Positions 29,723 through 50,110 of a DNA stretch of 64,000 nt are shown piece by piece; within the stretch, counting starts at the first letter, position 1, and every line of letters starts with the position of its first letter. Origin of the DNA: Gracilimonas sp. (lineage in GTDB: Bacteria; Bacteroidota; Rhodothermia; Balneolales; Balneolaceae); the NCBI GenBank assembly GCA_022450045.1, contig JAKURD010000007.1, positions 57,202-121,201 of the forward strand, in the 5' to 3' direction. The translations under genes and the position numbers were made by a program. Below the pieces are notes generated by a model. The model was given only the letters and a program-made list of their open reading frames with translations. It was not told the DNA's origin and ran no database searches.

Positions 29723-30574
29723 ATGAAATTACCTTTTGTTCTCGCGAAGAAATTTGTAGCCGGAGAATCTTTTGTAGATGCCAAGCCTGAAGTTGAACAT
29801 CTAAACGACAAAAAAATCAAGATCACTCTGGATTTACTTGGGGAAAATGTTAAAGATTGTGAGACAGCAGATGCTACTGTTCAAAGTTATATAGATCTGA
29901 TCAATAGTATAAAAGAGGCTCAATTGGAAAGTAACATTTCTATTAAGCTTACTATGTTGGGACTCGATATAGACCGCTCTTACTGTAAAGAGAATTTATT
30001 TAAGCTTTTGGAAGTTACCCGTGAAAATGATCAATTTGTACGAATTGACATGGAAGGATCTGATTACACACAGGTTACTATAGATTTGTTTAAAGAAGCT
30101 TATAAGGAATTTGGCAAACATGTTGGAATTGTAATACAAGCTTATCTGCACAGAAGTAAGAATGACATCCACGAGCTGGCACAAATTGGGGCAGATGTAC
30201 GAATCTGTAAAGGTGCATACAGTGAACCCAAAGAAAGTGCATTACAGAATATGGACGCCATTCGGGAAGCCTATAAGGAGTATACAAAAATATTATTGCA
30301 GAAAACTCCGTATCCAAGAATAGCAACGCATGACGATAAACTCATAGAATGGGTAAAGGGGTATGCGGATGAAAATGGGATTGGAAAAGACCGCTTTGAA
30401 TTTCAAATGCTATATGGTCTAAGGCAGGATACGATGGAAGCATTTGTGGAAGAAGGATATAATGCCCGGATATATGTTCCATTTGGAACCATGTGGTTCC
30501 CGTATTTTAAAAGAAGACTGATGGAGCGAAAAGAAAATATATGGTTTGTGATTTCGACAATGTTTCAAAAGTAA
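29723..30574 (+). CDS. proline dehydrogenase (monofunctional, FAD-dependent)
   Basis: A 283-residue PRODH barrel of the short PutB-like type that oxidises L-proline to pyrroline-5-carboxylate. Landmarks are YLHRSKNDIHEL near residue 142, DVRICKGAYSEP near 156, PYPRIATHDDKL, RFEFQMLYGLRQD and, at the end, RIYVPFGTMWFPYFKRRLMERKEN, which holds the two arginines that bind the proline carboxylate. No P5C dehydrogenase domain is fused or adjacent, so that step must be encoded elsewhere. It is 102 bp upstream of an S10 carboxypeptidase and opens the peptide-degradation region. Confidence 0.9.
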   Translation: MKLPFVLAKKFVAGESFVDAKPEVEHLNDKKIKITLDLLGENVKDCETADATVQSYIDLINSIKEAQLESNISIKLTMLGLDIDRSYCKENLFKLLEVTRENDQFVRIDMEGSDYTQVTIDLFKEAYKEFGKHVGIVIQAYLHRSKNDIHELAQIGADVRICKGAYSEPKESALQNMDAIREAYKEYTKILLQKTPYPRIATHDDKLIEWVKGYADENGIGKDRFEFQMLYGLRQDTMEAFVEEGYNARIYVPFGTMWFPYFKRRLMERKENIWFVISTMFQK

Positions 30575-30676
30575 CAGAGTAAAAATACTCTGTATTTCAG
30601 ATGAATTATTTGAATAGAAATTTTTCAAGCCAATCAATTAATACAACAACCCTAACAAGAACGGAATAGACCAATT

Positions 30677-32185
30677 ATGAATTCGAAACATAACACATTT
30701 AACATGAAGGTTTTTTTGTCTTTATTAATGCTATTTGTGATTTCTTCAGCAACGGTAGATGCTCAAAAACGATCTTTACCGATAGACACAGCTTTAGTTT
30801 CAACTGATGAAGTCACAATTAAAGGACAGAAAGTTCCTTATAGAGTAACAGTTGGCACACAACCCGTATTTGGAGAAGATGGTGAGGCGGATGCTTCATT
30901 GTTTTTTACTTATTACGAACGTACCGATGTTAGTAACAATGAAAACCGCCCGATTTTTATCTCTTTTAATGGAGGTCCGGGTGCAGGTTCTTTATGGATG
31001 CATTTGGGATATACAGGTCCTAAGCGTTTAAAAATTAGTGATGAAGGATATCCGGTTCAGCCTTATGGAGTAGAAGATAATCCACATTCGATTCTTGATG
31101 TGGCCGATATTGTTTTTGTGAATCCTGTGAATACCGGCTTTTCGCGAATTGTTAATGACGGGGAACCCGAGCAGTTTTTCGGAGTAAATGAGGATTTAGC
31201 TTACCTGGCTGATTGGATCGACACATTTATATCCAGACATGAAAGGTGGAAATCTCCAAAATATTTGATTGGGGAAAGCTATGGTACACCAAGGGTATCC
31301 GGGTTAGCCGGACAATTGCAAGGCCGTCACTGGATGTTTCTGAATGGTGTTGTTCTTGTTTCACCTACCGGTTTGGGATTAGAGCCTGAAGGCCCATCTC
31401 CTCGTTCCTCCGTACTTAAGATGCCTTACTATACGGCTGCAGCCTGGTACCATAATCAGCTTACTCCGGAATTACAGAACAGAGATCTAACTGAACTTCT
31501 TCCAGAAGTAGAAGCATTCACACTTGATGAATTACTGCCTGCATTAACCAGAGGAGGCTTTGTAGATGAAAACCGGAAAGCAGAATTAGTGAAGAAAGTA
31601 GCAAGATATGCCGGCCTTTCAGAAGAGTTCGTTGAAGACTACAACCTGGCGGTTCCGTCTTCTGCTTTTTGGAAAGAGTTACTTCGTGATGAAGGATTTA
31701 CCATTGGCCGTTTAGACTCCAGGTACAAGGGAATCGATAAAACGGATGGAGGGGATCGATATGACTATCCGGCTGAATATTCGTCTTGGAAGCATTCATT
31801 TACCCCGGCGATAAACCATTACATTCAAGATGTGCTTGGGTTTAAAACTGACCTCCAATATTACGTTTCCGGACCTGTCAGGCCCTGGAATAATGAAGGC
31901 AATGAAACAGGAGAAATGTTACGTCAGGCCATGGCTGAAAATCCAAACCTGAAAGTAATGGTACAGTCAGGTTATTATGATGGAGCTACGGATTACTTTT
32001 CTGCCAAGTACACTATGTGGAATATTGATTCGAGTGGAAAAATGAAGCACCGGTTTAGATTTGAAGGATACCGAAGCGGACATATGATGTATTTAAGAAC
32101 GGAAGATTTGGAAACTTCCAACGAACATATTCGTGAGTTCATTAATAATTCATTACCCGAAGAAGGGGCTCCCGCTAAATATTAA
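30677..32185 (+). CDS. secreted serine carboxypeptidase, S10 family
   Basis: A 502-residue exported peptidase. A signal peptide begins at the second methionine (30707, MKVFLSLLMLFVISSATVDAQ); the upstream ATG at 30677 adds ten residues, and either start is possible. The S10 hallmarks are ISFNGGPGAGSLWM (oxyanion region), GESYG with Ser201 as nucleophile, Asp in YYDGATDYF near 435-439, and His in RSGHMMY near 469. It removes C-terminal residues from peptides, probably in the periplasm. Placement between proline dehydrogenase and SusC/SusD points to peptide catabolism. Confidence 0.9.
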   Translation: MNSKHNTFNMKVFLSLLMLFVISSATVDAQKRSLPIDTALVSTDEVTIKGQKVPYRVTVGTQPVFGEDGEADASLFFTYYERTDVSNNENRPIFISFNGGPGAGSLWMHLGYTGPKRLKISDEGYPVQPYGVEDNPHSILDVADIVFVNPVNTGFSRIVNDGEPEQFFGVNEDLAYLADWIDTFISRHERWKSPKYLIGESYGTPRVSGLAGQLQGRHWMFLNGVVLVSPTGLGLEPEGPSPRSSVLKMPYYTAAAWYHNQLTPELQNRDLTELLPEVEAFTLDELLPALTRGGFVDENRKAELVKKVARYAGLSEEFVEDYNLAVPSSAFWKELLRDEGFTIGRLDSRYKGIDKTDGGDRYDYPAEYSSWKHSFTPAINHYIQDVLGFKTDLQYYVSGPVRPWNNEGNETGEMLRQAMAENPNLKVMVQSGYYDGATDYFSAKYTMWNIDSSGKMKHRFRFEGYRSGHMMYLRTEDLETSNEHIREFINNSLPEEGAPAKY

Positions 32186-32212
32186 AATTAATTTTCAAGG
32201 CAATTATTAACT

Positions 32213-32250
32213 AAACCACAGCTATAAATGTATAGTTGTGGTTTTTTATA
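32213..32250 (+). terminator. terminator after the S10 carboxypeptidase
   Basis: AAACCACAGCTATA (32213-32226) pairs with TATAGTTGTGGTTT (32231-32244) with one G-U pair and a 4-nt loop; a T-run follows. It separates the S10 gene from the SusC gene. Confidence 0.85.
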
Positions 32251-32407
32251 TCATGTGATAACAATCATATGTAGGAAGATATTGTACAGTGAGGTGCGTT
32301 TTTCAATTTTTTACACAGTTATCTTGTGTTTCCGCTTTTAATAGAAGAAAATAAAGCACCTAAAATATGGCAATGATTAGTTAATTAAGAATTAAAATAA
32401 AGATCAA

Positions 32408-35400
32408 ATGAAAATACAGATACCGCTTTTATTAATTTTAGCAATACTGTTTTGTTTACCCAATTTGAGTTGGGCACAAACAGGGACAATTGAAGGACAG
32501 GTTACAGATGAATCAGGAGAAATTCTGATCGGTGTAAACGTTACGCTTCAAATAGAAGGAAGAACATTAGGAGCATCAACAAATATTGATGGTAACTATA
32601 GAATAACAGGAGTTCCTGCAAGAACTGTAGAAGTTAGTGCACGATTTGTTGGCTTTAGAACTGAAACCAAGGAGGTGGATGTTACAGCAAATCAAATAAC
32701 TACTGTTGATTTCCTAATGAGCACATCAACTCTAAATCTGGACGAGTTAGTAGTAACTGGTACCGGTGGTACGGTAGAACGGAAATCATTAGGACATACT
32801 ATTGCTTCCGCTGATTTCGATGGTATTGAAGATGTCTCGACTACTTCTGTACAAGATGCTCTTACCGGCAAAATTGCCGGTGTAAATATCAATGCTCAAA
32901 GTGGAGCCATAGATCAGGAGCCTAAAATTCGTATTCGTGGAACCTCAAGTTTATCCATGACTAATCAGCCTTTGATTTATGTTGATGGTGTTCGTGTAAA
33001 CGGCGGCGGTGGATTTGCTCCGGGATTTGGTGCCGGCGGACTGGGTTCTCCTTCAGGCCTTTCAAATATTAACTTTGATGCTATTGACCGAGTTGAGATC
33101 CTAAAAGGACCTGCTGCTGCAACACTCTATGGTTCTCAGGCAAGTTCCGGTGTTATTCAAATCTTTACTAAGCAGGGACGGCAAGAGTCGGCTCCTCAAT
33201 TTGATATTGAATTAGGTACAACCTTGTACCAGATGCCAAACCGATTTCAGACAAATGCCGGTTTTGTTGAAAATGAGACAGAGCAACAAAATGTAAGTAA
33301 CATCTTAGGTGTGAATGTGGACTTGTATGAGCCTTTTGAAACACCTATAAACCTAATCGACCTTTACAATATTGGTGTTGGGCAAGAAATTTCTGCTTCT
33401 GTTCAAGGTGGTGGAGAGTCGATGACTTATTTTTCTAACCTAAGATACACATACACCGACGGTCCTTTTGATCCAAGTCCCTCGAATTTTAACGGAGGTG
33501 CGGTTGGTGAGGCCAATGATCTGTATAAAAAGATCTATTTCACCGGTAATTTAAATTTCATGCCAAGTGAAAATTTCACCTTGAGAGCTCAAACCTCTTA
33601 CACTAATTCAGATATTAGCATATATGAAAGTGGTATTACCATTTACACTCCTACCAGTACTTCTCGATATGCCAAACCTGAACGAGTAGGTGATGTTAGT
33701 AAGTTTGATACGTTTGGTATTCCGCTTTTTGCTACGGTTAGAGAAGGGACCTACCCAACTGTAACTGATAATACAAATCAGGGAAGAGTGGTATTAAAAG
33801 CTGATTATTTTCCTACCGATGAGCTTTCTTTTGATGCTTCTTTAGGGCTTGACTACCGAGACCAGCGCAGTGCTAACTTTCTGCCCTTCGGTTATAATGT
33901 GGATGGTAAAGCGCCTAACGGTGATGGCCAGATTTCAATTGGTACCCGTCAGCAGATGGTGCTGTCACTGGAAGGTAAAATGAACTGGATCAAAGATATT
34001 AATGAAGACCTCAGATCCTCTTTTGTAGCCGGTTTTCAGGCCTACCAGGAAGAACAAAATACGGCAAACTCAACCGGTACCGGTTTCTCCGGACCCGGCT
34101 TAGAAGTATTGGGTGCTACAGCGTCTCAAACTTCAGATTCTTATTTCCAGGAAGTTGTGAACGCAGGTGCTTTTATTCAGGAGCAAGTTGACTATGGCGA
34201 ATGGATCTACCTGACGGCCGGCTTGCGCATGGATGCAAGTAGTGCCTTTGGAGAAGATTTCAATTACGCAACATATCCAAAATTTTCAGCATCCTTTATC
34301 CCAACCACCGCATTTGATTTTGAGATCAATAATGTTTCCTCATTCAGGATTCGAGCTGCCTGGGGACAGTCAGGTCAGCAGCCGGGAGCCTTCGACAGGT
34401 TCACTACATTTGTACCAGTGAACTCAGCAGAAGGTTCCGGAGTACTGCCAGGAAACCCCGGTAATAGAGACTTGAAGCCGGAAGTTGCAACCGAGTGGGA
34501 AGCAGGATTTGAAATTGGTCTATTTGAAGACAAGTTTGGAATTGAAGCTACCTATTGGGATCGTGTAGTTAAAGATGCACTGATTGACAGGACTTATGCT
34601 CCATCAGGTGGATTTACTTCATCACAGCTAACCAATGCCGGAGAACTTGTAGCTCAAGGTGTTGAGTTAGGTTTAAACAGTAATGTGATACAAAACCCAA
34701 ATTTCACACTTAATGTATTTGTCAATGCAGCCTACATAAGAGAGGAAGTGACATCATTAGGTGGCGAACCGCCTATCAAGATTGATGCATCTTATATTCG
34801 TGACCGAATGTTTATTAAAGAAGGATATGCACCGGGTTCTTATTTTGGAACCAAATTGCCTGATGGTATAGCTTTTCCTTTTGATAGTAATCAAGATGGT
34901 ACTCCTGACAGTCAGTCTGAATTGGAAACTTATTTTTCAGGACCGGTTGATCCCGGTTCATTTAACTCAGCCATCATGGTTGCAGGACCTAACGGAGAAG
35001 CACTAACTGGTGGTTCAACATACCTTGACAATTATTTAGGTAAACCAACCCCGGATTGGGAAGGTGCTTTTGGCTTCTCTGCGAATCTGTACAAAAATAT
35101 CTCTGTGAGCAGTCGTTTCCAGTATGCTACAGGAAACTATTACCACCATAACCTGACCAATGCATTCCGCAGGGTTAACAGTGCTATTGGACGAAATATT
35201 ATGAGTGCGGCACAACTTGAGTCTGTACTTAAAAACCCTGCAAGTACTCCTTCAGAGCGAATAGATGCGGCTCAAAAATGGGTTAATAACAATGTATCTC
35301 TTTCCCCTTTTGACGGGTTAAATGAAATTGAGAAAGCTGACTACATCAGATGGACTAATTTGAGTATTTCTTACCGAATTCCTTCTGAAACAGTTGATAA

Positions 35401-35605
35401 ACTTGGTTTAAACGGTGCTTCACTGACGCTATCGGGTAACAACCTGGCGCTTTGGACTAAGTATGGAGGAGTTGACCCTCTTGCTACCGGAGAAGCTAGT
35501 TTAGGGCAGGGAGCATCTCTGCAAGAAAACTTTGGCGGCGGAATGGATACCTATGGCACTCCGCTACTTAGAACCTATGCCTTAACATTAAAGTTTGACT
35601 TTTAA
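32408..35605 (+). CDS. SusC/RagA-family TonB-linked outer-membrane transporter
   Basis: A 1065-residue transporter. Signal peptide to about residue 23 (NLSWAQT), CarboxypepD_reg domain (GTIEGQVTDESGEILIGVNV, to about 105), then a plug with SVQDALTGKIAGVNINAQSG and KIRIRGTSSLSMTNQPLIYVDGVRV, the SusC-type signature. The large barrel ends RTYALTLKFDF. It is directly followed by its SusD partner, so the pair should form the bed-bin type importer for large oligomers. Because the neighbours are peptidases and not glycoside hydrolases, the likely cargo is oligopeptide, as for RagAB. Substrate assignment is inference. Confidence 0.95.
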   Translation: MKIQIPLLLILAILFCLPNLSWAQTGTIEGQVTDESGEILIGVNVTLQIEGRTLGASTNIDGNYRITGVPARTVEVSARFVGFRTETKEVDVTANQITTVDFLMSTSTLNLDELVVTGTGGTVERKSLGHTIASADFDGIEDVSTTSVQDALTGKIAGVNINAQSGAIDQEPKIRIRGTSSLSMTNQPLIYVDGVRVNGGGGFAPGFGAGGLGSPSGLSNINFDAIDRVEILKGPAAATLYGSQASSGVIQIFTKQGRQESAPQFDIELGTTLYQMPNRFQTNAGFVENETEQQNVSNILGVNVDLYEPFETPINLIDLYNIGVGQEISASVQGGGESMTYFSNLRYTYTDGPFDPSPSNFNGGAVGEANDLYKKIYFTGNLNFMPSENFTLRAQTSYTNSDISIYESGITIYTPTSTSRYAKPERVGDVSKFDTFGIPLFATVREGTYPTVTDNTNQGRVVLKADYFPTDELSFDASLGLDYRDQRSANFLPFGYNVDGKAPNGDGQISIGTRQQMVLSLEGKMNWIKDINEDLRSSFVAGFQAYQEEQNTANSTGTGFSGPGLEVLGATASQTSDSYFQEVVNAGAFIQEQVDYGEWIYLTAGLRMDASSAFGEDFNYATYPKFSASFIPTTAFDFEINNVSSFRIRAAWGQSGQQPGAFDRFTTFVPVNSAEGSGVLPGNPGNRDLKPEVATEWEAGFEIGLFEDKFGIEATYWDRVVKDALIDRTYAPSGGFTSSQLTNAGELVAQGVELGLNSNVIQNPNFTLNVFVNAAYIREEVTSLGGEPPIKIDASYIRDRMFIKEGYAPGSYFGTKLPDGIAFPFDSNQDGTPDSQSELETYFSGPVDPGSFNSAIMVAGPNGEALTGGSTYLDNYLGKPTPDWEGAFGFSANLYKNISVSSRFQYATGNYYHHNLTNAFRRVNSAIGRNIMSAAQLESVLKNPASTPSERIDAAQKWVNNNVSLSPFDGLNEIEKADYIRWTNLSISYRIPSETVDKLGLNGASLTLSGNNLALWTKYGGVDPLATGEASLGQGASLQENFGGGMDTYGTPLLRTYALTLKFDF

Positions 35606-35653
35606 TTTAATGCTGTCAGCACAAACAATTTTTCACTCAAATTATTTTCAATT

Positions 35654-36952
35654 ATGAAAAGTATATTTAATCAATTTAAAATTCGCCACGCCTCGATATT
35701 AGTAACAGGAGCACTCCTGTTGTTTCTTGGCAGTTGTAACCTGTTGGAAGTAGAAAATCCAAACAGCCTCACCGTTGAGGACGTAAGTTTGCCTTCATCT
35801 GCTGAAGGTTTGAAAAACGGGCAGCTTAATGCGTTGATGTCCGGTTTAGGCTGGACCTATGCCGCTACATCTACCATCAGCGACGAGATTTACTGGACGG
35901 GTTCTTACGAATCTTATAAAACGTTCAATGAAGGAAGAGTCGCTTTTGACGCAAATGAAATCACGGTAGCGGGATTTCCTGAAATCAGTCAGGCAAGATA
36001 TATGTCTGACTTTGCTATTGAAAAGTTAGAAGAGTTTGATAGTAATTCTGAACTTGTTGACCGGTCTGTATTGGTTCGCAGTTATATATACGGGGCATTG
36101 ACTCGTATTACGATTGCTGACTCATACGATAATTTTGTTTTCTCAAATGGCACCGAAACATCTCCTGCTATTGGAGAAGACCAAATGTTTACGATTTACG
36201 ATCAAGCGATCAGTATGCTTGATAAAGCATTGCCTATTGCCCAAGCGGTTGGCAGTAGCGAGCTTGAAGGTCAGGTACTTGGACTTCGTGCAAGAGCAAA
36301 GCATGCCAAAGGAATTTGGCAGAAACTGAATCCTAAAGGGTCTGTTCCTGCAAACCCATTAGTGTCAGGAACGGGTGCTGTTGCGGATGCTGAAGATGCT
36401 TTAGATATTATGTCTGCAGATTATAAAGCGGTAATTAACTATCAGGCAGGTAATATTACCAACTATTTAGCCGGTCAGGTAAATAGCCGTGGGGAACTTA
36501 CTCTTACTCCAGATCCTGATGGAAGCAGAGCTCCTTTCAATGATCTGAAAACAGGTGATCCGGATCCCCGGGTAGTAGCTATTGCTGCTGACTTCAATGA
36601 CATTCAGACATATACTGAGAGCTATTCTCCGTTAACATGGTTGTCGGCTCGGGAAATGCACCTCATTATTGCAGAAGAATTAGTAGGAACAAATGACATC
36701 AAAGCCAGGAACGAGATCAATACGGTAAGAGGGCTTGATGGACTTCCTGATATGGATGTGACAGATAGTTTCGTAGAGTTTATCGAGCACGAAAGAAGAG
36801 CTAATCTTTATCTGCAAGGCAGAAGGCTGAATGATATGTACCGTTTTGGTTCACAGTCCCCAGACTGGTTGCCCGGTGAAGATGCATCGGACACTCCCGG
36901 AATATTATTGCCTATTCCTACCAATGAACAATTAGCAAATCCGGACCTCTGA
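35654..36952 (+). CDS. SusD/RagB-family outer-membrane lipoprotein
   Basis: A 432-residue lipoprotein: hydrophobic N-terminus ending LFLGSC with lipobox Cys near residue 28, then NLLEVENPNSLTVEDV. Helical TPR-like body and a C-terminal ARNEINTVRGLDGLP...FIEHERRANLYLQGRRLNDMYRFG, typical of RagB/SusD. It captures ligand at the cell surface and acts as the lid of the SusC transporter 48 bp upstream. Somewhat shorter than polysaccharide SusDs. Confidence 0.92.
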   Translation: MKSIFNQFKIRHASILVTGALLLFLGSCNLLEVENPNSLTVEDVSLPSSAEGLKNGQLNALMSGLGWTYAATSTISDEIYWTGSYESYKTFNEGRVAFDANEITVAGFPEISQARYMSDFAIEKLEEFDSNSELVDRSVLVRSYIYGALTRITIADSYDNFVFSNGTETSPAIGEDQMFTIYDQAISMLDKALPIAQAVGSSELEGQVLGLRARAKHAKGIWQKLNPKGSVPANPLVSGTGAVADAEDALDIMSADYKAVINYQAGNITNYLAGQVNSRGELTLTPDPDGSRAPFNDLKTGDPDPRVVAIAADFNDIQTYTESYSPLTWLSAREMHLIIAEELVGTNDIKARNEINTVRGLDGLPDMDVTDSFVEFIEHERRANLYLQGRRLNDMYRFGSQSPDWLPGEDASDTPGILLPIPTNEQLANPDL

Positions 36953-36998
36953 TAAAGGCCTTAAACCAATAGAAATTATAATTAACAGGATATAGAAT

Positions 36999-38597
36999 AT
37001 GTTGAATTTAAAATATAGAACAATGTTGTTGGGCTTGGGAGTATGTGTGCTTTCCATCTTCACAACAACGGTGTTGGCTCAACCTTCCAACCCCGCCCCA
37101 GACCGGACGGAAGGTGAAGGCCCATACGAACGCCTTATTATTCGCGGCGCTAATATGATTGACGGAACCGGGGCACCTATGACAGGCCCGGTCGATATTG
37201 TCATCGAAGGCAATAAAATTGTATCAGTACATCGGGTAGGTTATCCCGGTGTACCGATCAAAGAAGATCGACGTCCTGATGGAGCAACAAAGGAAATTGA
37301 TGCCTCCGGTATGTATGTGATGCCAGGATTCATTGACATGCATGTACATACAGGCGGGCAGCCAAAAGTACCTGATGCCGAATACACTTATAAACTATGG
37401 ATGGGTCATGGTATAACAACCGTCCGCGGTGTTCCATTTGACAATTTGGAATCATCACTGAGCGAGAAAGAGCGAAGTGAGCGAAACGAAATTGTTGCTC
37501 CGAGAATGTACAGTTACCATCGTGTAGGCTCAGGATGGGATGATCCTGTAAATACCCCTGAACAAGCACGTGAGTGGGTTCGCTGGGCTAAAGATCAAGG
37601 TATTGACGGGCTGAAAGTAGGTGCACACGATCCGGATATTATGGAAGCTCTTTTGGATGAAGCAGAGAAACTGAATCTAAACAGTACAGCTCACTTAGAC
37701 CAAATCGGCGTGGTTCGCATGAATACCGCTGATGCAACTAAATTAGGTTTAGGTGCTCAAACTCATTATTACGGATTGTTTGAATCCATGTATGATGACC
37801 ATGATCTACAGCCTTATCCCAACGACTATAATTACCAAAATGAGCAAGATCGTTTTGGGCAGGTTGCACGCCAATGGAACAAAATTGTAGAGCCCGGTAG
37901 TGAAGAATGGAATGAACTCATAGAGTTGTTCCTAAAGCACGACCTGACCATGGATCCTACCATGACGATCTATGAAGCGAGCAGAGATGTTATGAGAGCT
38001 CGTAATGCTGACTGGCATGAAGATTATACATTGCCAACGTTATGGGATTTCTATAAGCCCAATCGTGTAGCTCACGGATCTTATTGGTTCGATTGGACTA
38101 CTGAAGACGAGGTGCAATGGAGGAACTTTTACCGACGATGGATGCAGTTCCTTGATGACTACAAAGATGCCGGGGGACGTGTTACTACAGGTTCTGATGC
38201 AGGATTTATTTATAAGCTATACGGCTTTGATTACATCCGTGAATTAGAACTGCTGCAGGAAGCCGGTTTCCATCCTTTAGAAGTTATTCGTTCAGCTACC
38301 ATGAGCGGTGCAGAGGAATTATATAAAAAGATGGATGAAGATGCCCCTTTCGGAATTATTCGTCCCGATAAATTAGCTGATCTGGTTATCGTAGAAGAAA
38401 ATCCACTTCAAAACCTTAAAGTACTGTATGGAACAGGTGCTATAAGAGTGGAAGGTGTAGATGAAATTGTACGAGTGGGGGGTGTCAAATACACCATCAA
38501 AGATGGAATTGTGTATGACGCAAAACAACTGCTCGAAGATGTTCGCAATATGGTTGACGAACAAGAAGCGGAACTTGGTGAAAAAGAACGCTATTAA
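36999..38597 (+). CDS. secreted amidohydrolase with complete metal-ligand set
   Basis: A 532-residue exported amidohydrolase-superfamily protein (signal peptide to about residue 27, TTVLAQ). The metal-binding residues are all present: His115-x-His117 (DMHVHTGG), Lys206 (GLKVGAHD, candidate carboxylated Lys), His232 (TAHLDQ), His256 (QTHYYG) and Asp400 (GSDAGF). A C-terminal composite-sandwich segment (DKLADLVIVEENPLQNL) closes the fold. The family includes imidazolonepropionase-like enzymes and Xaa-Pro/Xaa-Arg dipeptidases of the Cc2672/Sgx9260 type. In this setting dipeptide or N-acyl-amino-acid hydrolysis is the leading guess. It is 46 bp downstream of the susD-like gene. Confidence 0.87.
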   Translation: MLNLKYRTMLLGLGVCVLSIFTTTVLAQPSNPAPDRTEGEGPYERLIIRGANMIDGTGAPMTGPVDIVIEGNKIVSVHRVGYPGVPIKEDRRPDGATKEIDASGMYVMPGFIDMHVHTGGQPKVPDAEYTYKLWMGHGITTVRGVPFDNLESSLSEKERSERNEIVAPRMYSYHRVGSGWDDPVNTPEQAREWVRWAKDQGIDGLKVGAHDPDIMEALLDEAEKLNLNSTAHLDQIGVVRMNTADATKLGLGAQTHYYGLFESMYDDHDLQPYPNDYNYQNEQDRFGQVARQWNKIVEPGSEEWNELIELFLKHDLTMDPTMTIYEASRDVMRARNADWHEDYTLPTLWDFYKPNRVAHGSYWFDWTTEDEVQWRNFYRRWMQFLDDYKDAGGRVTTGSDAGFIYKLYGFDYIRELELLQEAGFHPLEVIRSATMSGAEELYKKMDEDAPFGIIRPDKLADLVIVEENPLQNLKVLYGTGAIRVEGVDEIVRVGGVKYTIKDGIVYDAKQLLEDVRNMVDEQEAELGEKERY

Positions 38598-38625
38598 GAT
38601 TTCTATATAAATATCAATATCGATC

Positions 38626-38656
38626 GAAACCCCTGCCAAAGCAGGGGTTTCTTTTT
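38626..38656 (+). terminator. terminator inside the amidohydrolase cluster
   Basis: GAAACCCCTGC (38626-38636) pairs perfectly with GCAGGGGTTTC (38641-38651), with loop CAAA and then TTTTT. It sits between amidohydrolase genes 1 and 2 and should cut read-through. Confidence 0.9.
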
Positions 38657-38677
38657 AAGTAAAAGTGGGACTAACAA

Positions 38678-40264: not shown

Positions 40265-40328
40265 AACCAGCATAATTAAATAATAGTTTTCAATGCTGTA
40301 TTTATATGTTGAATGAATTCTTATCAAG

Positions 40329-40359
40329 CCTCCCACCCAGGGTAAATCCTTATGGGAGG
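40329..40359 (+). repeat. hairpin between the paralogous amidohydrolase genes
   Basis: CCTCCCA (40329-40335) pairs with TGGGAGG (40353-40359), with a 17-nt loop and no T-run. It may be an mRNA processing or stability structure; weak evidence. Confidence 0.35.
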
Positions 40360-40417
40360 TTCATAAGGCATTTCTTGGCTTTAGCTTTTATTACTCATCA
40401 ATAAGTTGGACAACACT

Positions 40418-42019
40418 ATGATTTATCATATAAAAAAAATCGTTAAAATACTTGGACTCGGATTGATTTTACTGGCCCTGAGTTGGCAAAGTGCACAAGC
40501 ACAAAAACAGTTTGGAGAACTGGCAGAAGGTCCTTACGACCGATTGGTTATCCGTAATGCAATGGTAATTCCCGGACATGGCGGCCCGCCGGTAGGCCCA
40601 TACGATATTGTTATTGAGGGAGACAAGATCACCGAGATGATTCCTTTTGACCCTGTGACAGCAGAACGAAGAGGTGACGCTAACCGTCCAACTGGAGACC
40701 GAATAATTGATGCTACCGGGAAGTATATAATGCCCGGGCTCATTGATTTACATGGCCACCTCAGGCAAGAACCGATGCCATTAGAGTATATCTACTATCT
40801 AAAATTAGCTCACGGAGTGACTACTTTTGGGCCGGCTTCAGATAGAGGAGTTGAATATGCGATGGAAGAAGCTCGGCTTGCAGATCGAAATGAAATTTTG
40901 GCTCCCACCATGTACCCGTTATGGTCATGGGGTTCCGGATTGGAGTATGATGAAGTATTTTTATCAGATCCTGAAAATGCACCCAGAATAGCGAAGGAAA
41001 TGGCTGAAAAGGGAGCACATCAGGTTTACCTTAACGGTATAGCATGGAACCAGGAATTATTTGAGGCTGCTGCGGATGCGGTATGGGAAAATGGGGGTGT
41101 AACGGGAGTCCATATTCCTCCATCCTATACAGCTGTAATAGATGCTGTGGATGCAGCACGATTAGGGGTTACTTTTATACTTCACCATTACGGATATGGG
41201 GAATCATCATTAGATAGAGCTGTTCAGGATTATCCAAGAAATTACAATTTCGATAATGAGAACCATAGGTTTCGTGAAGCAGGAAGAGTATGGCAGGAAG
41301 CAGATAAGGAACGCCTTTTAGGTGAAGTAGCTGATTCTCTGGTAGCTTATGGAGTCATCATGCAACCCACCCAGGTGGTATATGAAGCAAACAGAGATAT
41401 TGTAAGAGCTCAGAGCTTGCCATGGCACGAAAAATATACTCATCAGACCTTAATAGAATGGAACCTTCCTGACCCGGCTTATCATGGTTCCTTTCATTAC
41501 GACTGGACTTCAGATGACGAACAAACCTGGTATGAGGCCTATGACCTCTGGGGTGATCTGATCTATGAATTTAACAAGCGAGGCGGTACGGTTGCTTATG
41601 GTACAGATGATAACTACATCTGGGCTACTCCCGGTTTCTCAAATATCAGGGAATTACAGCTTCTCAGAGAGTCTGGAATGCATACGCTTGAGGTTCTCAA
41701 ATCAGCAACACATAACAGTGCAAAAGCACTTCGCATTGAAGATGAAACGGGATTAGTACGTCCCGGTTACGAAGCAGATCTTATCCTGATTGATGGAAGT
41801 CCCTTATATAACCTACGGTTCATGTATTCTTTTGGAGCCATCACACTTGATGAAAATGAGAACATGTACAGAACGAAAGGTATTGTTCACACCATCAAAG
41901 ATGGAGTTGTTATCAACAACGACAAGCTAATGGAAGAAGTAGCCCGAATGGTGAAAGAATCGAAAGAAGGAGTGGGTTCAAATATTGCCAATGATCCTTT
42001 TTTAATTGAAGAAGACTAA
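40418..42019 (+). CDS. secreted amidohydrolase, tandem paralogue B (no strand-4 Lys)
   Basis: A 533-residue exported protein from the ATG at 40418 (MIYHIKKIVKILGLGLILL, signal to QSAQAQ); a TTG four codons upstream is less likely. It has the same scaffold as the gene at 38678: DLHGHLRQE (His-x-His), GVHIPP, ILHHYGY and GTDDNY supply three further ligands, and the strand-4 position is Tyr (HQVYLNG) in place of Lys. The close similarity in sequence and length shows recent duplication, while differences such as HMH/HGH and the strand-4 residue suggest divergence in substrate. The BNR-protein gene follows by 11 bp, so they are co-transcribed. Confidence 0.87.
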   Translation: MIYHIKKIVKILGLGLILLALSWQSAQAQKQFGELAEGPYDRLVIRNAMVIPGHGGPPVGPYDIVIEGDKITEMIPFDPVTAERRGDANRPTGDRIIDATGKYIMPGLIDLHGHLRQEPMPLEYIYYLKLAHGVTTFGPASDRGVEYAMEEARLADRNEILAPTMYPLWSWGSGLEYDEVFLSDPENAPRIAKEMAEKGAHQVYLNGIAWNQELFEAAADAVWENGGVTGVHIPPSYTAVIDAVDAARLGVTFILHHYGYGESSLDRAVQDYPRNYNFDNENHRFREAGRVWQEADKERLLGEVADSLVAYGVIMQPTQVVYEANRDIVRAQSLPWHEKYTHQTLIEWNLPDPAYHGSFHYDWTSDDEQTWYEAYDLWGDLIYEFNKRGGTVAYGTDDNYIWATPGFSNIRELQLLRESGMHTLEVLKSATHNSAKALRIEDETGLVRPGYEADLILIDGSPLYNLRFMYSFGAITLDENENMYRTKGIVHTIKDGVVINNDKLMEEVARMVKESKEGVGSNIANDPFLIEED

Positions 42020-42030
42020 ATAAAACAGAT

Positions 42031-45000
42031 ATGACCGGAATAAAAATCTCATCCAAAATCATCCTGGGAACTTTTAAGTTTGCTGCAGCCATTATTATTG
42101 GTTCATTATGCTTGGAAGTTCAGGCACAACAAATAGCTCAACCCGGTCAATACGACCAACTCAAGTACCGGCACATCGGACCTGATGGAAACAGGACGAT
42201 TGCTGTAATTGGTGTTCCCGGTGATCCTTCAACAATATTAGTTGGAGCAGCCTCCGGAGGTATTTGGAAGACCACCGATTACGGAACTAACTGGAAACCT
42301 GTATTTGAATCCCAAAGTGCTTCATCGGTTTCTGCTTTGGGCGTTTCACAATCAGCACCTAATGAAATGTGGGCAGGTACGGGAGAAACATTTTTAATTC
42401 GCCCGGCTCATGCAATGGGAGATGGTATCTATAAATCCACTGATTATGGAGATAACTGGCAGAAAATGGGCCTCGATAAAACAGGTCGGATCGGACAAGT
42501 CAGAGTAAATCCACAAGATTCTGATATTGTCTATGCTTGTGCTTTGGGCCATTCCTTTGGCCCTCAAAAAGAAAGAGGTGTTTATCGAACTATCGATGGA
42601 GGAGAAAATTGGGAGTTGGTACTTCATGTCAATGAAGATACCGGATGTGCAGATATGGACATTGATCCCAATGATCCAAATACGGTATTTGCAGCATTTT
42701 GGCAATTGCAGATCGATACCTGGAAACTTAACAGCGGTGGGCCTCACAGTGGTGTTTATCGTTCAAAAGATGGTGGAGATACCTGGGAAAAACTATCAGG
42801 TGTAGGAAAAGGTTTACCCGGATCTGAAGATCACCATGTAGGTAAGGTTTCTGTTCGTGTTGCTCCAAGCAACTCCCAAAGAGTATATGTACTTACAGAA
42901 GAAAGCAGTCCCGGTTTTTACAAATCTGATGATGGAGGCGATAACTGGGAACTGGTTACACGAAATCACACCATCAACGAACGGGCTCCTTATTACACTC
43001 GCTTTGATGTTGATCCTGAAGATCAGGAACGGATATATTTTGCCTCGGTTCGGTTCAGTATGTCCAGAAATGGAGGAAAGACATTAGTGGACAATGCTCC
43101 GCGTGGTGGAGGAGACAATCATGATATCTGGATTGATCCTACCAATCCAAAACGATTTATGGTGGCGCACGATGGCGGACTTGGAGTAACCCTTAACCAT
43201 GGCCGCACTTTTGATCAACATACATTACCAATAGCCCAGATGTACCATGTTCATGTGGATAACGAAATTCCATACAATGTATATGGAAACCGGCAGGACG
43301 GATACTCTTACAAAGCCCCAAGTAACAGCCGTATGGGATATATACCATTAGGCTTATGGGAAGCAGTTGGAGGGTGTGAAAGTGGTTTTTCTATTCCTGA
43401 TACCGTAGACGGATATACTGTATGGTCGGGATGTTATGACGGTGGCCTTGAAATCTATGATGAACGAAATAAACATTCCCGTAATGTTCGGGTATGGCCT
43501 GAAGCTGCTTACGGTTGGGCTCCAAAAGATTTAAAATTTCGCTGGCACTGGACTTTTCCAATCTATATATCTCCACACGACAATAATAAGGTTTATGTAG
43601 GAAGCCAATATGTGCATGTGACCAATAATCGTGGCCGAAGCTGGGATGTTATTAGCCCTGATTTAACACAAAACTTGGAGAGCCATCAGGAAAGCTCCGG
43701 TGGAGTAGCAACCGATAACCTGATGACATTTGACGGAAACACCCTTTTTGCTATTGCAGAATCTGAATTGGAGAATGGCCTTATTTGGACAGGAAGTAAT
43801 GACGGCTTAATACACCTTACAAGAGATGGCGGTGAGAACTGGATAAACGTGAGCGACAATATTAGTGATTTTCCCGAGTGGGGAACCATTGCTAATATCG
43901 AACCCTCAAAATATGATGCCGGAACTGCTTACATCAGTGTTGACGCTCATCAGCAAGCTGATTTTGATCCCTATATCTATAAAACAGAAAACTACGGACG
44001 GAGTTGGGAAAAAATAAGTGCCGGAATTCCTAAATCTGTTCATAGTTATGTGCATGTGGTTCGGGAAGACCCCAAAAAGCCGGGCGTACTATATGCCGGT
44101 ACTGACAATCAGGTTTATTTTTCACCCAATGATGGGGAAGACTGGCTTTCGTTAAGAAACAATATGCCCTCTGCACCGGTCTACTGGCTGACTGTTCAAG
44201 ATCATTTTGATGACCTGGTAATTGGTACTTACGGCCGTGGGTTTTGGATCATGGATGATATAAATCCAATCAGAAACCTTACTACGGATGTAATGAACGA
44301 TAACCTGCATTTATTTGCCCTGAGACCCGCCTATCGTTTCTACAGTATTCAGGGTATAAAAACCGATGGACGCAGCCACATTCGTGGAGAAAATCCTCCT
44401 TATGGGGCATCTATAAATTATTTTGTAAAAAATGATGCAAGTGAACTCGCTAAGATTGAGATTTTTGACCGCAATGGAGATTTGGTGCGAACCTTATCAG
44501 GTAACGCTGAAAATGGCATCAACAGAGTTTGGTGGGATTTAAGTCATGAGCCTTCAATTACTCCGAAACTACGGGTAGCTCCGCCAAATATGCCATGGGT
44601 ACCAATTCGTCAGGAAGGCTGGCGGCCTTTGGTAACTTGGGATTTAGATCTTTGGAGAGGACAACTGGGCCCAAGAGTGATACCGGGTATATTTACAGTT
44701 AAAGTTACGGTAGGTGAACACGAGATGACCCGGGAACTGGAAGTTCGCAAAGACCCAACCTCAGTTGGTACCGTTGAAGAAATTGAACAACAAGTAGCAT
44801 TTGGAATTGAGTTACGAGATCAGCTGAATGAAGTAGTAGTCCTGATAAATGAAATTGAATGGATCCGCAAAGAGTTTGAAGATCTTATGGAGCGACTCAA
44901 GGAGACAAGAGATGAGACTCAGGTTGCTGCTATTATTAATAAAGCCAGTGAACTTAATGACCGTGTCACAATGATTGAAAGCAATCTCTATGATATCCAT

Positions 45001-45255
45001 CTGACCGGTGCCCGAGAAGATGCCTTCCGAAATCCAATGAAACTGTATGGACGAATAAGTGCGTTAGGTAGCGATATTATGTACAACGGTGCTGATTTTG
45101 CCCCCACCCAACAGCAGGTAGAAGTGTTTGATAAAATTCAAGATCAATTCGAAATGACGAAAGAAGCTTACAACACGTTTGTTGAAGAACGCTTAATTCC
45201 ATTTTATCAGGAAATAGGGCGCGGACAGGGCGAAGTGGAATTTATTGAACAGTAA
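42031..45255 (+). CDS. secreted BNR/sortilin-like beta-propeller protein
   Basis: A 1074-residue exported protein (signal peptide to about residue 33, LEVQAQQ). It has at least eight Asp-box motifs of the type S/T-x-D-x-G-x-x-W: TTDYGTNW, STDYGDNW, TIDGGENW, SKDGGDTW, SDDGGDNW, TRDGGENW, TENYGRSW and SPNDGEDW. Together they suggest a ten-bladed VPS10/sortilin-like or double propeller over residues 35-750. A beta domain and a helical C-terminal domain (about 900-1074) follow. Proteins like this are annotated as glycosyl hydrolases, but sialidase catalytic residues are not evident. Binding of peptides or proteins fits both sortilin folds and this locus. The next gene starts 56 bp on. Confidence 0.85.
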   Translation: MTGIKISSKIILGTFKFAAAIIIGSLCLEVQAQQIAQPGQYDQLKYRHIGPDGNRTIAVIGVPGDPSTILVGAASGGIWKTTDYGTNWKPVFESQSASSVSALGVSQSAPNEMWAGTGETFLIRPAHAMGDGIYKSTDYGDNWQKMGLDKTGRIGQVRVNPQDSDIVYACALGHSFGPQKERGVYRTIDGGENWELVLHVNEDTGCADMDIDPNDPNTVFAAFWQLQIDTWKLNSGGPHSGVYRSKDGGDTWEKLSGVGKGLPGSEDHHVGKVSVRVAPSNSQRVYVLTEESSPGFYKSDDGGDNWELVTRNHTINERAPYYTRFDVDPEDQERIYFASVRFSMSRNGGKTLVDNAPRGGGDNHDIWIDPTNPKRFMVAHDGGLGVTLNHGRTFDQHTLPIAQMYHVHVDNEIPYNVYGNRQDGYSYKAPSNSRMGYIPLGLWEAVGGCESGFSIPDTVDGYTVWSGCYDGGLEIYDERNKHSRNVRVWPEAAYGWAPKDLKFRWHWTFPIYISPHDNNKVYVGSQYVHVTNNRGRSWDVISPDLTQNLESHQESSGGVATDNLMTFDGNTLFAIAESELENGLIWTGSNDGLIHLTRDGGENWINVSDNISDFPEWGTIANIEPSKYDAGTAYISVDAHQQADFDPYIYKTENYGRSWEKISAGIPKSVHSYVHVVREDPKKPGVLYAGTDNQVYFSPNDGEDWLSLRNNMPSAPVYWLTVQDHFDDLVIGTYGRGFWIMDDINPIRNLTTDVMNDNLHLFALRPAYRFYSIQGIKTDGRSHIRGENPPYGASINYFVKNDASELAKIEIFDRNGDLVRTLSGNAENGINRVWWDLSHEPSITPKLRVAPPNMPWVPIRQEGWRPLVTWDLDLWRGQLGPRVIPGIFTVKVTVGEHEMTRELEVRKDPTSVGTVEEIEQQVAFGIELRDQLNEVVVLINEIEWIRKEFEDLMERLKETRDETQVAAIINKASELNDRVTMIESNLYDIHLTGAREDAFRNPMKLYGRISALGSDIMYNGADFAPTQQQVEVFDKIQDQFEMTKEAYNTFVEERLIPFYQEIGRGQGEVEFIEQ

Positions 45256-45310
45256 TAAGTAAGTGAATTTCAATTATCAACTTTATTTCAAAACGAATAA
45301 AATTTCTCTT

Positions 45311-48238: not shown

Positions 48239-48268
48239 ATAAAAGAGACCCTTTTTCTATACATTACC

Positions 48269-48309
48269 AAAGCCAAAGTGTTCATGTGAGCACTTTGGCT
48301 TTTCCTTTA
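48269..48309 (+). terminator. terminator after the TPR-metallopeptidase gene
   Basis: AAAGCCAAAGTG (48269-48280) pairs perfectly with CACTTTGGCTTT (48291-48302), 10-nt loop, then TTCCTTT. Its stem resembles that of the ssrA terminator. Confidence 0.85.
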
Positions 48310-48384
48310 AAGACAGGACTGCTTTTACTATAATTGAGCGCTGTTCAATGATTTGAATTTTCACCTATATAACAAGACAATTAA

Positions 48385-49701
48385 ATGAAGTTCTCACTAA
48401 GAATATTGATTCCGGTTTTAATGCTAATTGTGATCGGCTGCACTCCTCAAACCCCCAATGAAGAAAATGATGAATCTGAGATCTTTGTGGAAGAATCTTA
48501 TGTAAATGAGGTCGAAGAATTGGCTGAAAGCGCCAAAATTAAGGAAGCGATGGAATTCATCCGAAATATGGATGAGGAAACCGTACAAAATCAGATTGCG
48601 ATAACCGAAATTCCGGCCCCGCCATTTCAGGAAGAGGTTAGGGCTGAACGATATGCGGAGATGATGCAAGAATATGGGCTCGATCAGGTTGAAATAGATG
48701 AGGAAGGGAATGTGATAGGCAAGCGTCCCGGAACCGAGGGTGAGCAGACTATTGTGATCTCAGCACACCTGGACACGGTGTTCCCGGAAAGAACCAACGT
48801 AGAGGTTGAGGTTCGAAATGACACGCTCTTTGCTCCGGGCATCACTGATGATGCCCGTGGTCTGTCGGTACTTCTTGCATTGATAAATACTTTGGAAACC
48901 CTGGATATCCAAAGTGCTGATAATATCTGGTTCATGGGAACGGTGGGAGAAGAGGGCCTTGGAGACCTGAGAGGGGTAAAGCACCTTTTTGAGACGGAAG
49001 GCGATAAAATTGATGCCTTTATTTCCATTGACGGAAGCCGCGCATCACGGATCGTGAATAAAGCGTTGGGGTCACATCGGTACCGAGTCACATTTGAAGG
49101 CCCGGGCGGACATTCCTGGGGTGCGTTCGGGACTGCAAATCCGGCTCATGCTATGGGAAGGGCGATCACTTATTTTGAAGATAATGCTTCTCAGTTTGTT
49201 AAAACAGGCCCCAAAACAAGCTACAATATTGGAAGGATAGGGGGAGGAACATCCGTTAATTCTATTCCCTTCGAAAACTGGATGGAAATTGACATGCGTT
49301 CGGAAAGCCCTGACGCCCTGCAGCAGATAGATGGCATTATGCAGGATGCTATCCAAAAGGCACTTATCGAAGCAAACAGTATCAAAACCCAGGGACCTGA
49401 TCTGACGGTAGATATTGACATGATCGGGAATAGGCCATCAGGAGAAATCCCGGCTGACGTCCCTTTTGTTCAGCGGGCTTTGGCAGTTTCGAAGTATTTT
49501 GGGCAGGTACCCGAACTGACAAGATCTTCAACAGATGCCAATGTATCCATTTCAATGGGGATTCCATCCATGACCATTGGCGGAGGCGGAAACAGTGGCA
49601 GTTCTCACTCTCTGGATGAGTGGTGGTATAACGAAGACGGCTATAAAGGAGTACAGCGAGCATTTATAATCTTAATGGCGGAAACAGGGTTGGCAGAGTG
49701 A
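48385..49701 (+). CDS. M20-family metallopeptidase lipoprotein
   Basis: A 438-residue lipoprotein (LIVIGC lipobox near residue 19). The M20/M28-like zinc site is intact: VISAHLDTVFP (His, Asp), PGITDDARG (bridging Asp), GTVGEEGLGDL (general base Glu and ligand Glu), SIDGSRAS (Asp), and the C-terminal GNSGSSHSLDEWW (His). A dimerisation insert with FEGPGGHSWGAFG lies in the middle. The closest type is a peptidase T-like or carboxypeptidase G2-like exopeptidase acting on small peptides outside the cytoplasm. It is one base upstream of the RidA-family gene (TGA-T-ATG). Confidence 0.88.
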   Translation: MKFSLRILIPVLMLIVIGCTPQTPNEENDESEIFVEESYVNEVEELAESAKIKEAMEFIRNMDEETVQNQIAITEIPAPPFQEEVRAERYAEMMQEYGLDQVEIDEEGNVIGKRPGTEGEQTIVISAHLDTVFPERTNVEVEVRNDTLFAPGITDDARGLSVLLALINTLETLDIQSADNIWFMGTVGEEGLGDLRGVKHLFETEGDKIDAFISIDGSRASRIVNKALGSHRYRVTFEGPGGHSWGAFGTANPAHAMGRAITYFEDNASQFVKTGPKTSYNIGRIGGGTSVNSIPFENWMEIDMRSESPDALQQIDGIMQDAIQKALIEANSIKTQGPDLTVDIDMIGNRPSGEIPADVPFVQRALAVSKYFGQVPELTRSSTDANVSISMGIPSMTIGGGGNSGSSHSLDEWWYNEDGYKGVQRAFIILMAETGLAE

Positions 49702-49702
49702 T

Positions 49703-50089
49703 ATGAAAAGGCAGAACATTACCTCCGGAACAGAATGGGAAGTTAAAGTAGGGTACAGTCGCGCGGTGAAAGTCGGGAACCAAGTATTTGTATCAGGGAC
49801 TACAGCTGTTGATGAAGATGGTGTGATCGTTGGGAAAGGAAATGTATATCTTCAAACAAAACAATGTATCCTGAACATCGAAAAAGCACTGATAAAAGCC
49901 GGTGCTTCATTGAACGATGTAGTCCGAACCCGAACGTTTATTACAAATATTGACAAGTGGGAGGCTTTTGGAAAAGTTCATAAAGAATTTTTCGGAGCCA
50001 TTAAACCCGTTGCCACTTTAGTAGAAGTAAGCAAACTCATAGATCCGGATCTATTAGTTGAAATGGAAGTGGATGCAGTATTGGGATAG
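49703..50089 (+). CDS. RidA/YjgF-family protein lacking the catalytic arginine
   Basis: A 128-residue single-domain trimer-type protein with GNQVFVSGTTAVDEDG, NIEKALIKAGASLNDVVRTRTFI and LVEVSKLIDPDLLVEMEVDAV. In RidA the segment PARSCVEV supplies the Arg needed for enamine/imine deamination. Here it reads PVATLVEV, so Arg is replaced by Ala. The protein therefore belongs to the Arg-less Rid-like subfamilies, whose activity is not established. No signal peptide: cytoplasmic. Translationally coupled to the M20 gene, so perhaps related to amino-acid release or catabolism. The convergent receptor gene ends 21 bp downstream. Confidence 0.88.
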   Translation: MKRQNITSGTEWEVKVGYSRAVKVGNQVFVSGTTAVDEDGVIVGKGNVYLQTKQCILNIEKALIKAGASLNDVVRTRTFITNIDKWEAFGKVHKEFFGAIKPVATLVEVSKLIDPDLLVEMEVDAVLG

Positions 50090-50110
50090 TTTTAGTAGTG
50101 AGTCTTGCAC

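What the first reader, a model, noticed from the sequence alone, without database searches (positions are those of the whole stretch)
29723..50089. PUL-like locus built from peptidases and proline oxidation instead of glycoside hydrolases
Seen: SusC/SusD, S10 carboxypeptidase, three amidohydrolases, TPR-HEYAH metallopeptidase, M20 peptidase, sortilin-like propeller, RidA-like protein and proline dehydrogenase, all on one strand over 20 kb with no carbohydrate-active enzyme. Known: RagAB of Porphyromonas imports oligopeptides, and some amidohydrolases of this superfamily are Xaa-Pro dipeptidases. Inference: a peptide-utilisation locus feeding proline and other amino acids into catabolism, possibly for proline-rich proteins such as collagen-like material. 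I know of no standard description of this exact gene set.
Basis: partly seen in the sequence, partly recalled or inferred. Interest (0 to 1): 0.75.

Follow-up and report, generated by a model that had tools for sequence, protein, structure and literature searches.

The report
Peptide uptake locus recruiting proline oxidation
A bacterium of the Balneolaceae carries a block of genes that looks built to import protein fragments, trim off amino acids and burn the proline, and some of its relatives seem to have added proline-burning and amino-acid-import genes to the same block more than once, which hints at what it is for.

Summary
The gene block is real. It holds SusC/SusD, an S10 carboxypeptidase, three amidohydrolases, a VPS10-type propeller, a TPR protein with HEYAH, and a proline dehydrogenase; no carbohydrate-active family was hit. 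It is probably not one operon: terminator-like hairpins follow S10 and AH1 at conserved positions, and another separates M20-Rid, which only one other locus genome shares.

The core (S10, SusC, SusD, AH1, AH2 and/or AH3) recurs in 8 of 395 phylum genomes searched, all in one family. The key new evidence is gene recruitment. All 8 carry in the block an extra copy of proline dehydrogenase (6 of 8) and/or a Na+/amino-acid (NSS) symporter (4 of 8), against 1 of 50 other family genomes. Neither set of copies is one clade (AU p 5e-5 and 9e-6), so both genes joined repeatedly or were converted there.

Best reading: a peptide-utilisation locus whose output includes proline. Collagen is not supported (no hydroxyproline-epimerase family gene found in this genome). 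AH2 and AH3 lack the lysine of Xaa-Pro dipeptidases, and the Rid protein lacks its catalytic arginine. A new variant of SusCD uptake loci; the substrate is unproven.

The parts
29723..30574 (+). proline dehydrogenase (283 aa, single domain), extra copy in this genome; the housekeeping copy is on contig C34
   Evidence: Pfam PF01619 135 bits; paralogue positions; tree
30677..32185 (+). S10 serine carboxypeptidase with signal peptide (by eye); in all locus genomes
   Evidence: Pfam PF00450 50 bits; 8 of 8 locus genomes
32213..32244 (+). terminator-like hairpin after S10, separating proDH-S10 from the SusC unit
   Evidence: equivalent hairpin in 5 of 6 genomes tested
32408..35605 (+). SusC/RagA-type TonB-linked outer-membrane transporter
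   Evidence: TIGR04056 477 bits, cut-off 368
35654..36952 (+). SusD/RagB-type surface lipoprotein
   Evidence: PF07980 26.6 bits, cut-off 23.1
36999..38597 (+). AH1, exported amidohydrolase with HxH-K-H-H-D metal set
   Evidence: PF01979; K206 in 10 of 10 AH1 rows
38626..38651 (+). terminator-like hairpin after AH1
   Evidence: found in 6 of 7 genomes tested
38678..40264 (+). AH2, exported amidohydrolase with S/N at the lysine position
   Evidence: PF01979; fold nearest prolidase/ochratoxinase group
40406..42019 (+). AH3, paralogue of AH2 (72-73% identical) with Y at the lysine position; drawn from a TTG start
42031..45255 (+). VPS10/sortilin-like propeller protein; in 3 of 8 locus genomes
   Evidence: PF15902 104 bits
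45263..48238 (+). TPR lipoprotein with HEYAH...NNExE, putative metallopeptidase; in 5 of 8 locus genomes
   Evidence: TPR hits; motif invariant in 5 rows; domain unmodelled
48270..48301 (+). terminator-like hairpin after the TPR gene, likely 3' limit of the conserved unit
   Evidence: also in G007
48385..49701 (+). M20 peptidase lipoprotein, accessory; in 2 of 8 locus genomes
   Evidence: PF01546 62 bits
49703..50089 (+). Rid-family protein without the catalytic Arg, accessory; in 2 of 8 locus genomes
   Evidence: PF01042 105 bits; TIGR00004 74 bits, cut-off 106; sequence

Best explanation
This is a modular peptide-utilisation locus of Balneolaceae. SusC/SusD bring oligopeptides, or other amide-linked amino-acid compounds, through the outer membrane. 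Exported S10 carboxypeptidase, amidohydrolases AH1-AH3 and, in some genomes, the TPR-HEYAH protein, DUF885 or M20 trim them to small peptides and free amino acids. Amino acids enter the cytoplasm by a Na+-coupled NSS symporter (encoded in the block in 4 of 8 genomes, elsewhere in the genome in the rest), and the proline is oxidised by the block's own proline dehydrogenase (6 of 8) and then P5C dehydrogenase. Shown: gene content, conserved core synteny, and recruitment of proDH and NSS that is repeated and nearly confined to locus genomes. Predicted by sequence: export of the hydrolases (signal peptides by eye) and separate transcription units (hairpins). Inferred: that the imported substrate is a peptide, that proline is a major product, and the order of hydrolysis.
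For: The core recurs in 8 of 395 phylum genomes, in two gene orders. Extra proDH: 6 of 8 locus genomes against 1 of 50 other family genomes; extra NSS: 4 of 8 against 0 of 50; either: 8 of 8 against 1 of 50, Fisher p 5e-9. The locus proDHs are not one clade (AU p 5e-5; G000+G007+G002+G014 p 0.011 and G300+G027 p 0.003), nor are the five S10-side NSS copies (p 9e-6), while the locus S10s with G319's form one clade (quick tree, SH-aLRT 99). proDH sits upstream of S10, downstream of S10, or beyond NSS. Locus proDH is under purifying selection (dN/dS 0.07 for G000-G007, the only unsaturated pair). Across phyla, an AH3-type gene and S10 are adjacent in an Acidobacteria record (59% each), and a prolyl aminopeptidase above its NCBIfam cut-off lies directly upstream of an AH2 pair in a Marinimicrobia record. 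P5C dehydrogenase above its cut-off is found in 5 of 8 locus genomes.
Against: No experiment. The substrate class of SusCD cannot be read from sequence. G120 and G285 have no proDH in the block. G120 and four of the five other members of its genus examined apparently use another proDH type. In 26 AH2-bearing records outside the family no proDH was seen in the stretch fetched, so AH2 is not proline-specific. In the window genome and G002 and G007 the best P5CDH match is below the cut-off (341-344 bits, cut-off 614), and sub-cut-off matches occur in 12 of 14 control genomes. The NSS query is nearest to 4us3 (recalled as a hydrophobic amino-acid transporter); a proline transporter, 9wml, is among the hits but ranks lower. 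The Fisher p ignores shared ancestry, and several of the 50 other genomes are incomplete.
Confidence: 0.62

Rival explanations
1. The locus handles a specific amide-linked compound, such as N-acyl amino acids or a peptide natural product, and not general peptides. The amidohydrolases split an acyl-amino-acid bond as ochratoxinase-type enzymes do, and proline is one possible amino-acid part.
For: The AH2 model is as close to ochratoxinases as to prolidases. AH2 relatives lie beside penicillin amidase (L052, G074), D-aminopeptidase (L050), M20 (L049, L051) and an Amidohydro_3 protein (L056).
Against: S10 and, in some genomes, DUF885, M20 and the HEYAH protein suggest several peptide bonds to cut. 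Neighbours of AH2 relatives vary, so they do not point to one compound.
Confidence: 0.22
2. proDH is not functional in the pathway. It is a homology arm: the block moves between genomes by recombination at the chromosomal proDH, leaving a duplicate.
For: In G120 the block occupies the interval where relatives have the housekeeping proDH. In G300 it lies directly beside it, with proDH copies as direct repeats at both ends of the S10-SusC stretch. The locus proDHs of G000, G007 and G002 are nested among genus g6 housekeeping copies, next to G308.
Against: In the window genome, G002, G007, G014 and G027 the block is not at the housekeeping site, yet an intact proDH persists, with low dN/dS measured for the G000-G007 pair. 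NSS was also captured at least twice, and the housekeeping NSS and proDH lie on different contigs in G000, G014, G285 and G300.
Confidence: 0.15
3. Collagen- or gelatin-type hydroxyproline-rich protein is the substrate.
For: Proline output. A DHDPS-family fragment and an AraC regulator lie beside the block in G027, and G027 has a Pro_racemase-family gene elsewhere.
Against: No Pro_racemase-family gene found in the window genome; 1 of 8 locus genomes has one. No collagenase-type peptidase family was hit in the block.
Confidence: 0.06

Closest known systems
RagAB of Porphyromonas gingivalis and BT2263-BT2264 of Bacteroides thetaiotaomicron (SusCD-type peptide importers)
   Same: SusC/SusD-type pair, with peptides as cargo there and as proposed cargo here. 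From passages of PMC7782687 and PMC11817032.
   Different: Here the pair is linked to its own S10, amidohydrolases and a proline dehydrogenase. I recall, and did not test, that the ragAB operon encodes no such catabolic enzyme. Peptide cargo here is inferred.
Polysaccharide utilisation loci (Sus-like)
   Same: Layout: SusCD next to exported hydrolases.
   Different: No CAZyme family and no regulator family was hit in the block.
COG1228-type amidohydrolases (group name recalled): Xaa-Pro dipeptidase, Arg/Lys carboxypeptidase, ochratoxinase (2p9b, 3feq, 2qs8, 3mtw, 4c60)
   Same: Fold and metal motifs; AH1 keeps the lysine.
   Different: About 14-18% identity to AH2 over the fold. AH2 has S/N and AH3 has Y in place of the lysine. 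The Xaa-Pro dipeptidase model scores 64-66 bits against a cut-off of 500.

Membership tests
SusCD nutrient-uptake locus | adjacent SusC and SusD above curated cut-offs | tested here: met
   TIGR04056 477/368 bits; PF07980 26.6/23.1; 48 bp apart
Polysaccharide utilisation locus | carbohydrate-active enzyme in the block | tested here: not met
   no CAZyme family hit among the 11 proteins in Pfam; no dedicated CAZyme library was available
RagAB/BT2263-64 peptide importer | peptide bound by SusC/SusD | not testable with these tools
   RagA and BT_2264 are the second and third nearest solved SusC-type sequences, behind 8aa4; needs ligand data
COG1228 Xaa-Pro dipeptidase | HxH-K-H-H-D metal-ligand set, AH1 | tested here: met
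   10 of 10 AH1 rows; K aligned to a K of 2p9b
COG1228 Xaa-Pro dipeptidase | HxH-K-H-H-D metal-ligand set, AH2 and AH3 | tested here: not met
   K position: N 16 and S 10 of 26 AH2 rows, Y 4 of 4 AH3-type rows
COG1228 Xaa-Pro dipeptidase | score above NF051886 cut-off | tested here: not met
   64-66 bits against 500 for AH1, AH2 and AH3
Peptidase S10 | Pfam gathering score and GESYG nucleophile motif | tested here: met
   50/21.9 bits; GESYG at residues 199-203 (role of the motif recalled)
Proline dehydrogenase | Pfam gathering score over the full domain | tested here: met
   135/27 bits, profile 3-273 of 278
RidA imine deaminase | catalytic Arg (Arg105 of TdcF) | tested here: not met
   aligned by eye in G000 and G007: A in place of R; requirement from passages of PMC4433059
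HExxH metallopeptidase (TPR protein) | zinc-site fold around HEYAH | tested here: inconclusive
   motif invariant in 5 rows; model pLDDT below 50 there; no solved relative at E 0.1

The most novel reading that the evidence does not exclude
A complete outer-membrane-to-metabolism cassette for a proline-bearing peptide, built in modules (S10-proDH-NSS and SusCD-AH1-AH2/3). It spreads among Balneolaceae and rebuilds its proline-oxidation and amino-acid-uptake ends from local duplicates each time, partly by recombining at the chromosomal proline dehydrogenase. AH2 and AH3 would be lysine-less amidohydrolases with a new activity on such peptides.
Probability: 0.3. Interest if true: 0.68.

Novelty: new variant of a known kind. 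Interest (0 to 1): 0.52.

Why it matters
SusCD loci are usually read as sugar systems, and SusC/SusD pairs without CAZymes are hard to assign. Here the assignment comes from evolution: independent capture of the same two genes hints at what the locus delivers. The same test (extra housekeeping copies recruited into a locus in several lineages) could assign other orphan SusCD loci. AH2, found at 57-87% identity in several phyla and with no close solved relative, is a good enzyme target.

Tried and rejected
Single operon: thought unlikely because of hairpins after S10 (5 of 6 genomes tested), after AH1 (6 of 7) and after TPR (2 of 2). These are predictions. Counts of promoter-like and terminator-like sites over 32186-50400 are no higher than in shuffles (36 against 41.2; 14 against 14.6); the case rests on conserved position. 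G002 lacks both the S10 and the AH1 hairpin.

Genomic island at tmRNA: the tmRNA about 480 bp upstream was not found in the ten fetched stretches of the seven other locus genomes. Not followed further.

Collagen/hydroxyproline: not supported.

One ancestral proDH inherited with the block: rejected by AU tests. Gene conversion from the housekeeping copy cannot be told apart from new recruitment. The groups tested were named by location, but the two smaller ones after the tree was seen.

Context of the near-universal AH1 homologue (contig C48): looked at, uninformative.

TPR structure: low confidence, no fold search run.

Literature: SusD + proline dehydrogenase + gene cluster + carboxypeptidase gave 0 papers, Balneolaeota + SusD 0, SusC/SusD + gelatin + collagen + peptidase + proline 0. 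Searches were seen as listings. Passages only were seen of PMC9723794, PMC6298971, PMC9122927, PMC7782687, PMC4433059 and PMC11817032; none of these passages describes this gene set. Only open-licence PMC papers are searched, so absence there is weak.
Full report
WHAT IS THERE. Eleven + strand genes at 29723-50089: proDH, S10, SusC, SusD, AH1, AH2, AH3, VPS10, TPR-HEYAH, M20, Rid. By eye, S10, AH1-3 and VPS10 start with signal peptides, and SusD, TPR and M20 with lipoprotein-like signals; proDH and Rid have none.

TRANSCRIPTION. The block is probably not one unit. A 14-bp hairpin with a T run follows S10. Hairpins at the same place, some of different sequence, are found in 5 of the 6 genomes that share the S10-SusC gap (G002 lacks it). 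Another follows AH1 in 6 of 7 genomes tested (again not G002; G027 not tested), and one follows TPR in the window and in G007. The overall number of terminator-like sites in 32186-50400 is no higher than in shuffles (14 against 14.6), so the case rests on conserved position. Predicted units: proDH-S10; SusC-SusD-AH1; AH2-AH3-VPS10-TPR; M20-Rid. M20 and Rid are 74-76% identical to those of G007 against 87-95% for the eight other genes the two genomes share (VPS10 is absent in G007), with dS above 2, so they have a different history.

HOW CONSERVED. AH2 at E <= 1e-150 is in 11 of 395 phylum genomes. In 8 of these 11 the neighbourhood holds S10, SusC, SusD, AH1 and AH2 and/or AH3: G000 (own), G002, G007, G014, G027, G120, G285, G300, all in one family. 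The other three (G084, G074, G124) have AH2 without the block. Content over the 8: S10, SusC, SusD and AH1 8 of 8; AH2 and/or AH3 8 of 8; TPR 5 of 8 (G002's contig ends nearby); VPS10 3 of 8, split into two frames in G002; proDH 6 of 8; NSS symporter 4 of 8; M20-Rid 2 of 8; DUF885 2 of 8. G027 and G300 have another order: SusC-SusD-AH1...AH2, then TPR-S10-proDH, with DUF885 in between. A ninth genome, G319, has a 77% S10 next to an NSS gene and nothing else of the block.

RECRUITMENT OF PROLINE AND AMINO-ACID GENES. In 58 family genomes, 53 have this type of proDH and 46 have exactly one. The context of the single copy is shared in six of the seven genomes read, with the seventh (G027) sharing one side: a DUF4097-like gene, proDH, a DoxX-like gene (names by eye). 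Seven genomes have two or more copies. Six of these are locus genomes, with the extra copy in the block. The seventh, G427, has 7% contamination and no AH2. In the window genome a third, partial copy on the 4-kb contig C54 is probably assembly redundancy. The NSS transporter (PF00209) behaves alike: 52 of 58 genomes have it, four have two copies, all four are locus genomes, and the extra copy lies next to S10, or in G300 next to the proDH that follows S10. Together, 8 of 8 locus genomes and 1 of 50 others carry an extra copy of either gene. The AH2 status of the 58 comes; ten of them, mostly incomplete, only. Fisher p is 5e-9, not corrected for relatedness.

The extra proDHs are not one lineage. 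The tree holds 51 of the 61 matches; ten, mostly the most distant, were not fetched. The copies of G000, G007 and G002 group with the genus g6 copy of G308. That of G014 groups with the g6 housekeeping copies. That of G300 is sister to its own housekeeping copy. That of G027 is a long, unplaced branch. AU tests reject one clade for all six (p 5e-5), for five without G027 (2e-4), for G000+G007+G002+G014 (0.011) and for G300+G027 (0.003). The five NSS copies beside S10, including G319's, are not one clade (9e-6; tree of 26 of the 56 matches). The locus S10s together with G319's are one clade (quick tree of 19 rows, SH-aLRT 99; one further row, G084, was dropped because no match was found in its stretch). 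So proDH was added, or overwritten by conversion, up to four times and NSS at least twice, each time at this block. In G120 the block fills the interval where relatives have the housekeeping proDH. In G300 it lies beside that gene. This supports a rival or complementary idea, that proDH is also a recombination anchor.

WHAT THE ENZYMES COULD DO. AH2 (model pLDDT 88) folds like prolidase, ochratoxinase, Xaa-Pro dipeptidase and Arg/Lys carboxypeptidase, enzymes that, from general knowledge, cut a C-terminal amino acid from an acyl or aminoacyl group. In a 40-row alignment all rows keep HxH, two His and Asp. The lysine position holds K in 10 of 10 AH1 rows, N or S in 26 of 26 AH2 rows and Y in 4 of 4 AH3-type rows. 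AH1 is therefore the best candidate for a classical binuclear dipeptidase; AH2 and AH3 need their own assay.

OUTSIDE THE FAMILY. Of 28 AH2 loci in named genomes, 2 are the Balneolaceae above. For the other 26 (57-79% identity; records labelled Bacteroidetes groups, Rhodothermales, Gemmatimonadetes, Marinimicrobia, Acidobacteria and others), the stretch fetched reaches up to 10 kb on each side, less at contig ends. In it, none shows a proDH match, 1 has S10 (L073), 1 has a prolyl aminopeptidase directly upstream (L071, TIGR01249 360/260 bits), 7 have a VPS10 relative, and 2 of those 7 also have SusCD at about 35-41% identity. Peptidase or amidase genes near others: M20 (L049, L051), M28 (L068), M55 (L050), penicillin amidase (L052); neighbours of the 26 were only partly assigned. 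Peptide or amide chemistry is a common theme; the proline link was seen in the Balneolaceae block and in L071.

PATHWAY COMPLETION. P5C dehydrogenase is above the TIGR01236 cut-off in 5 of 8 locus genomes. In the three of the window's genus the best match is 341-344 bits (cut-off 614), and matches below the cut-off are common in control genomes (12 of 14), so this step is not shown for the window genome. G120 and four of the five other members of its genus examined apparently have another proDH type. No Pro_racemase-family gene was found in the window genome.

LITERATURE. SusCD-type peptide importers are known (RagAB, BT2263-64; passages of PMC7782687 and PMC11817032). PMC6298971 (passages) suggests peptides as food of flavobacteria with few PULs, from their peptidase:CAZyme ratio. 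I found no description of this gene set in the searches listed under Tried and rejected.

VERDICT. A real, conserved peptide-type SusCD locus. The proline link is supported by repeated recruitment. The substrate and the amidohydrolase chemistry are open.

Noticed in passing
window 18194-21097 (-): GH3 N- and C-domains fused to a beta-lactamase-type domain in one 967-aa protein.
   Followed up: no
window 50111-56703 (-): TonB receptor-like protein, FecR and an ECF sigma factor, convergent with the block; ORFs of like size and start follow the block in G007 (by eye). Possible neighbour regulator; not seen beside the block in the other locus genomes.
   Followed up: partly
window 61087-63540 (-): Penicillin-amidase-family gene 11 kb from the block; genes of this family also sit beside AH2 relatives in G074 and L052.
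   Followed up: partly
L107 (own contig C54, 3983 bp) vs L106 (C34): Near-duplicate of the housekeeping proDH region (96% aa for proDH, 80-86% for its neighbours), probably assembly redundancy or a second strain.
   Followed up: partly
L076:24-3867 (G002): VPS10 gene split into two overlapping frames next to what looks by eye like a transposase at the contig end.
   Followed up: no
window 29257-29287 and 48270-48301: The terminator-like hairpins after tmRNA and after TPR share nearly the same arms (AAGCCAAAGTG), perhaps a repeated terminator type in this genome.
   Followed up: no
L069:16447-17532, G300 equivalent in L094: A DUF3179 gene (Pfam in L069; G300's similar by eye) flanks the block in G014 and in G300 although the rest of the surroundings differ.
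   Followed up: no
L056, L057, L058, L059, L061, L064, L072: Seven Bacteroidota records, most labelled Flavobacteriaceae or Flavobacteriia: AH2 next to a VPS10 relative and a 576-591-aa protein with a sub-threshold esterase match, in six of them also a 557-561-aa protein (Amidohydro_3 in L056); SusCD in two.
   Followed up: partly
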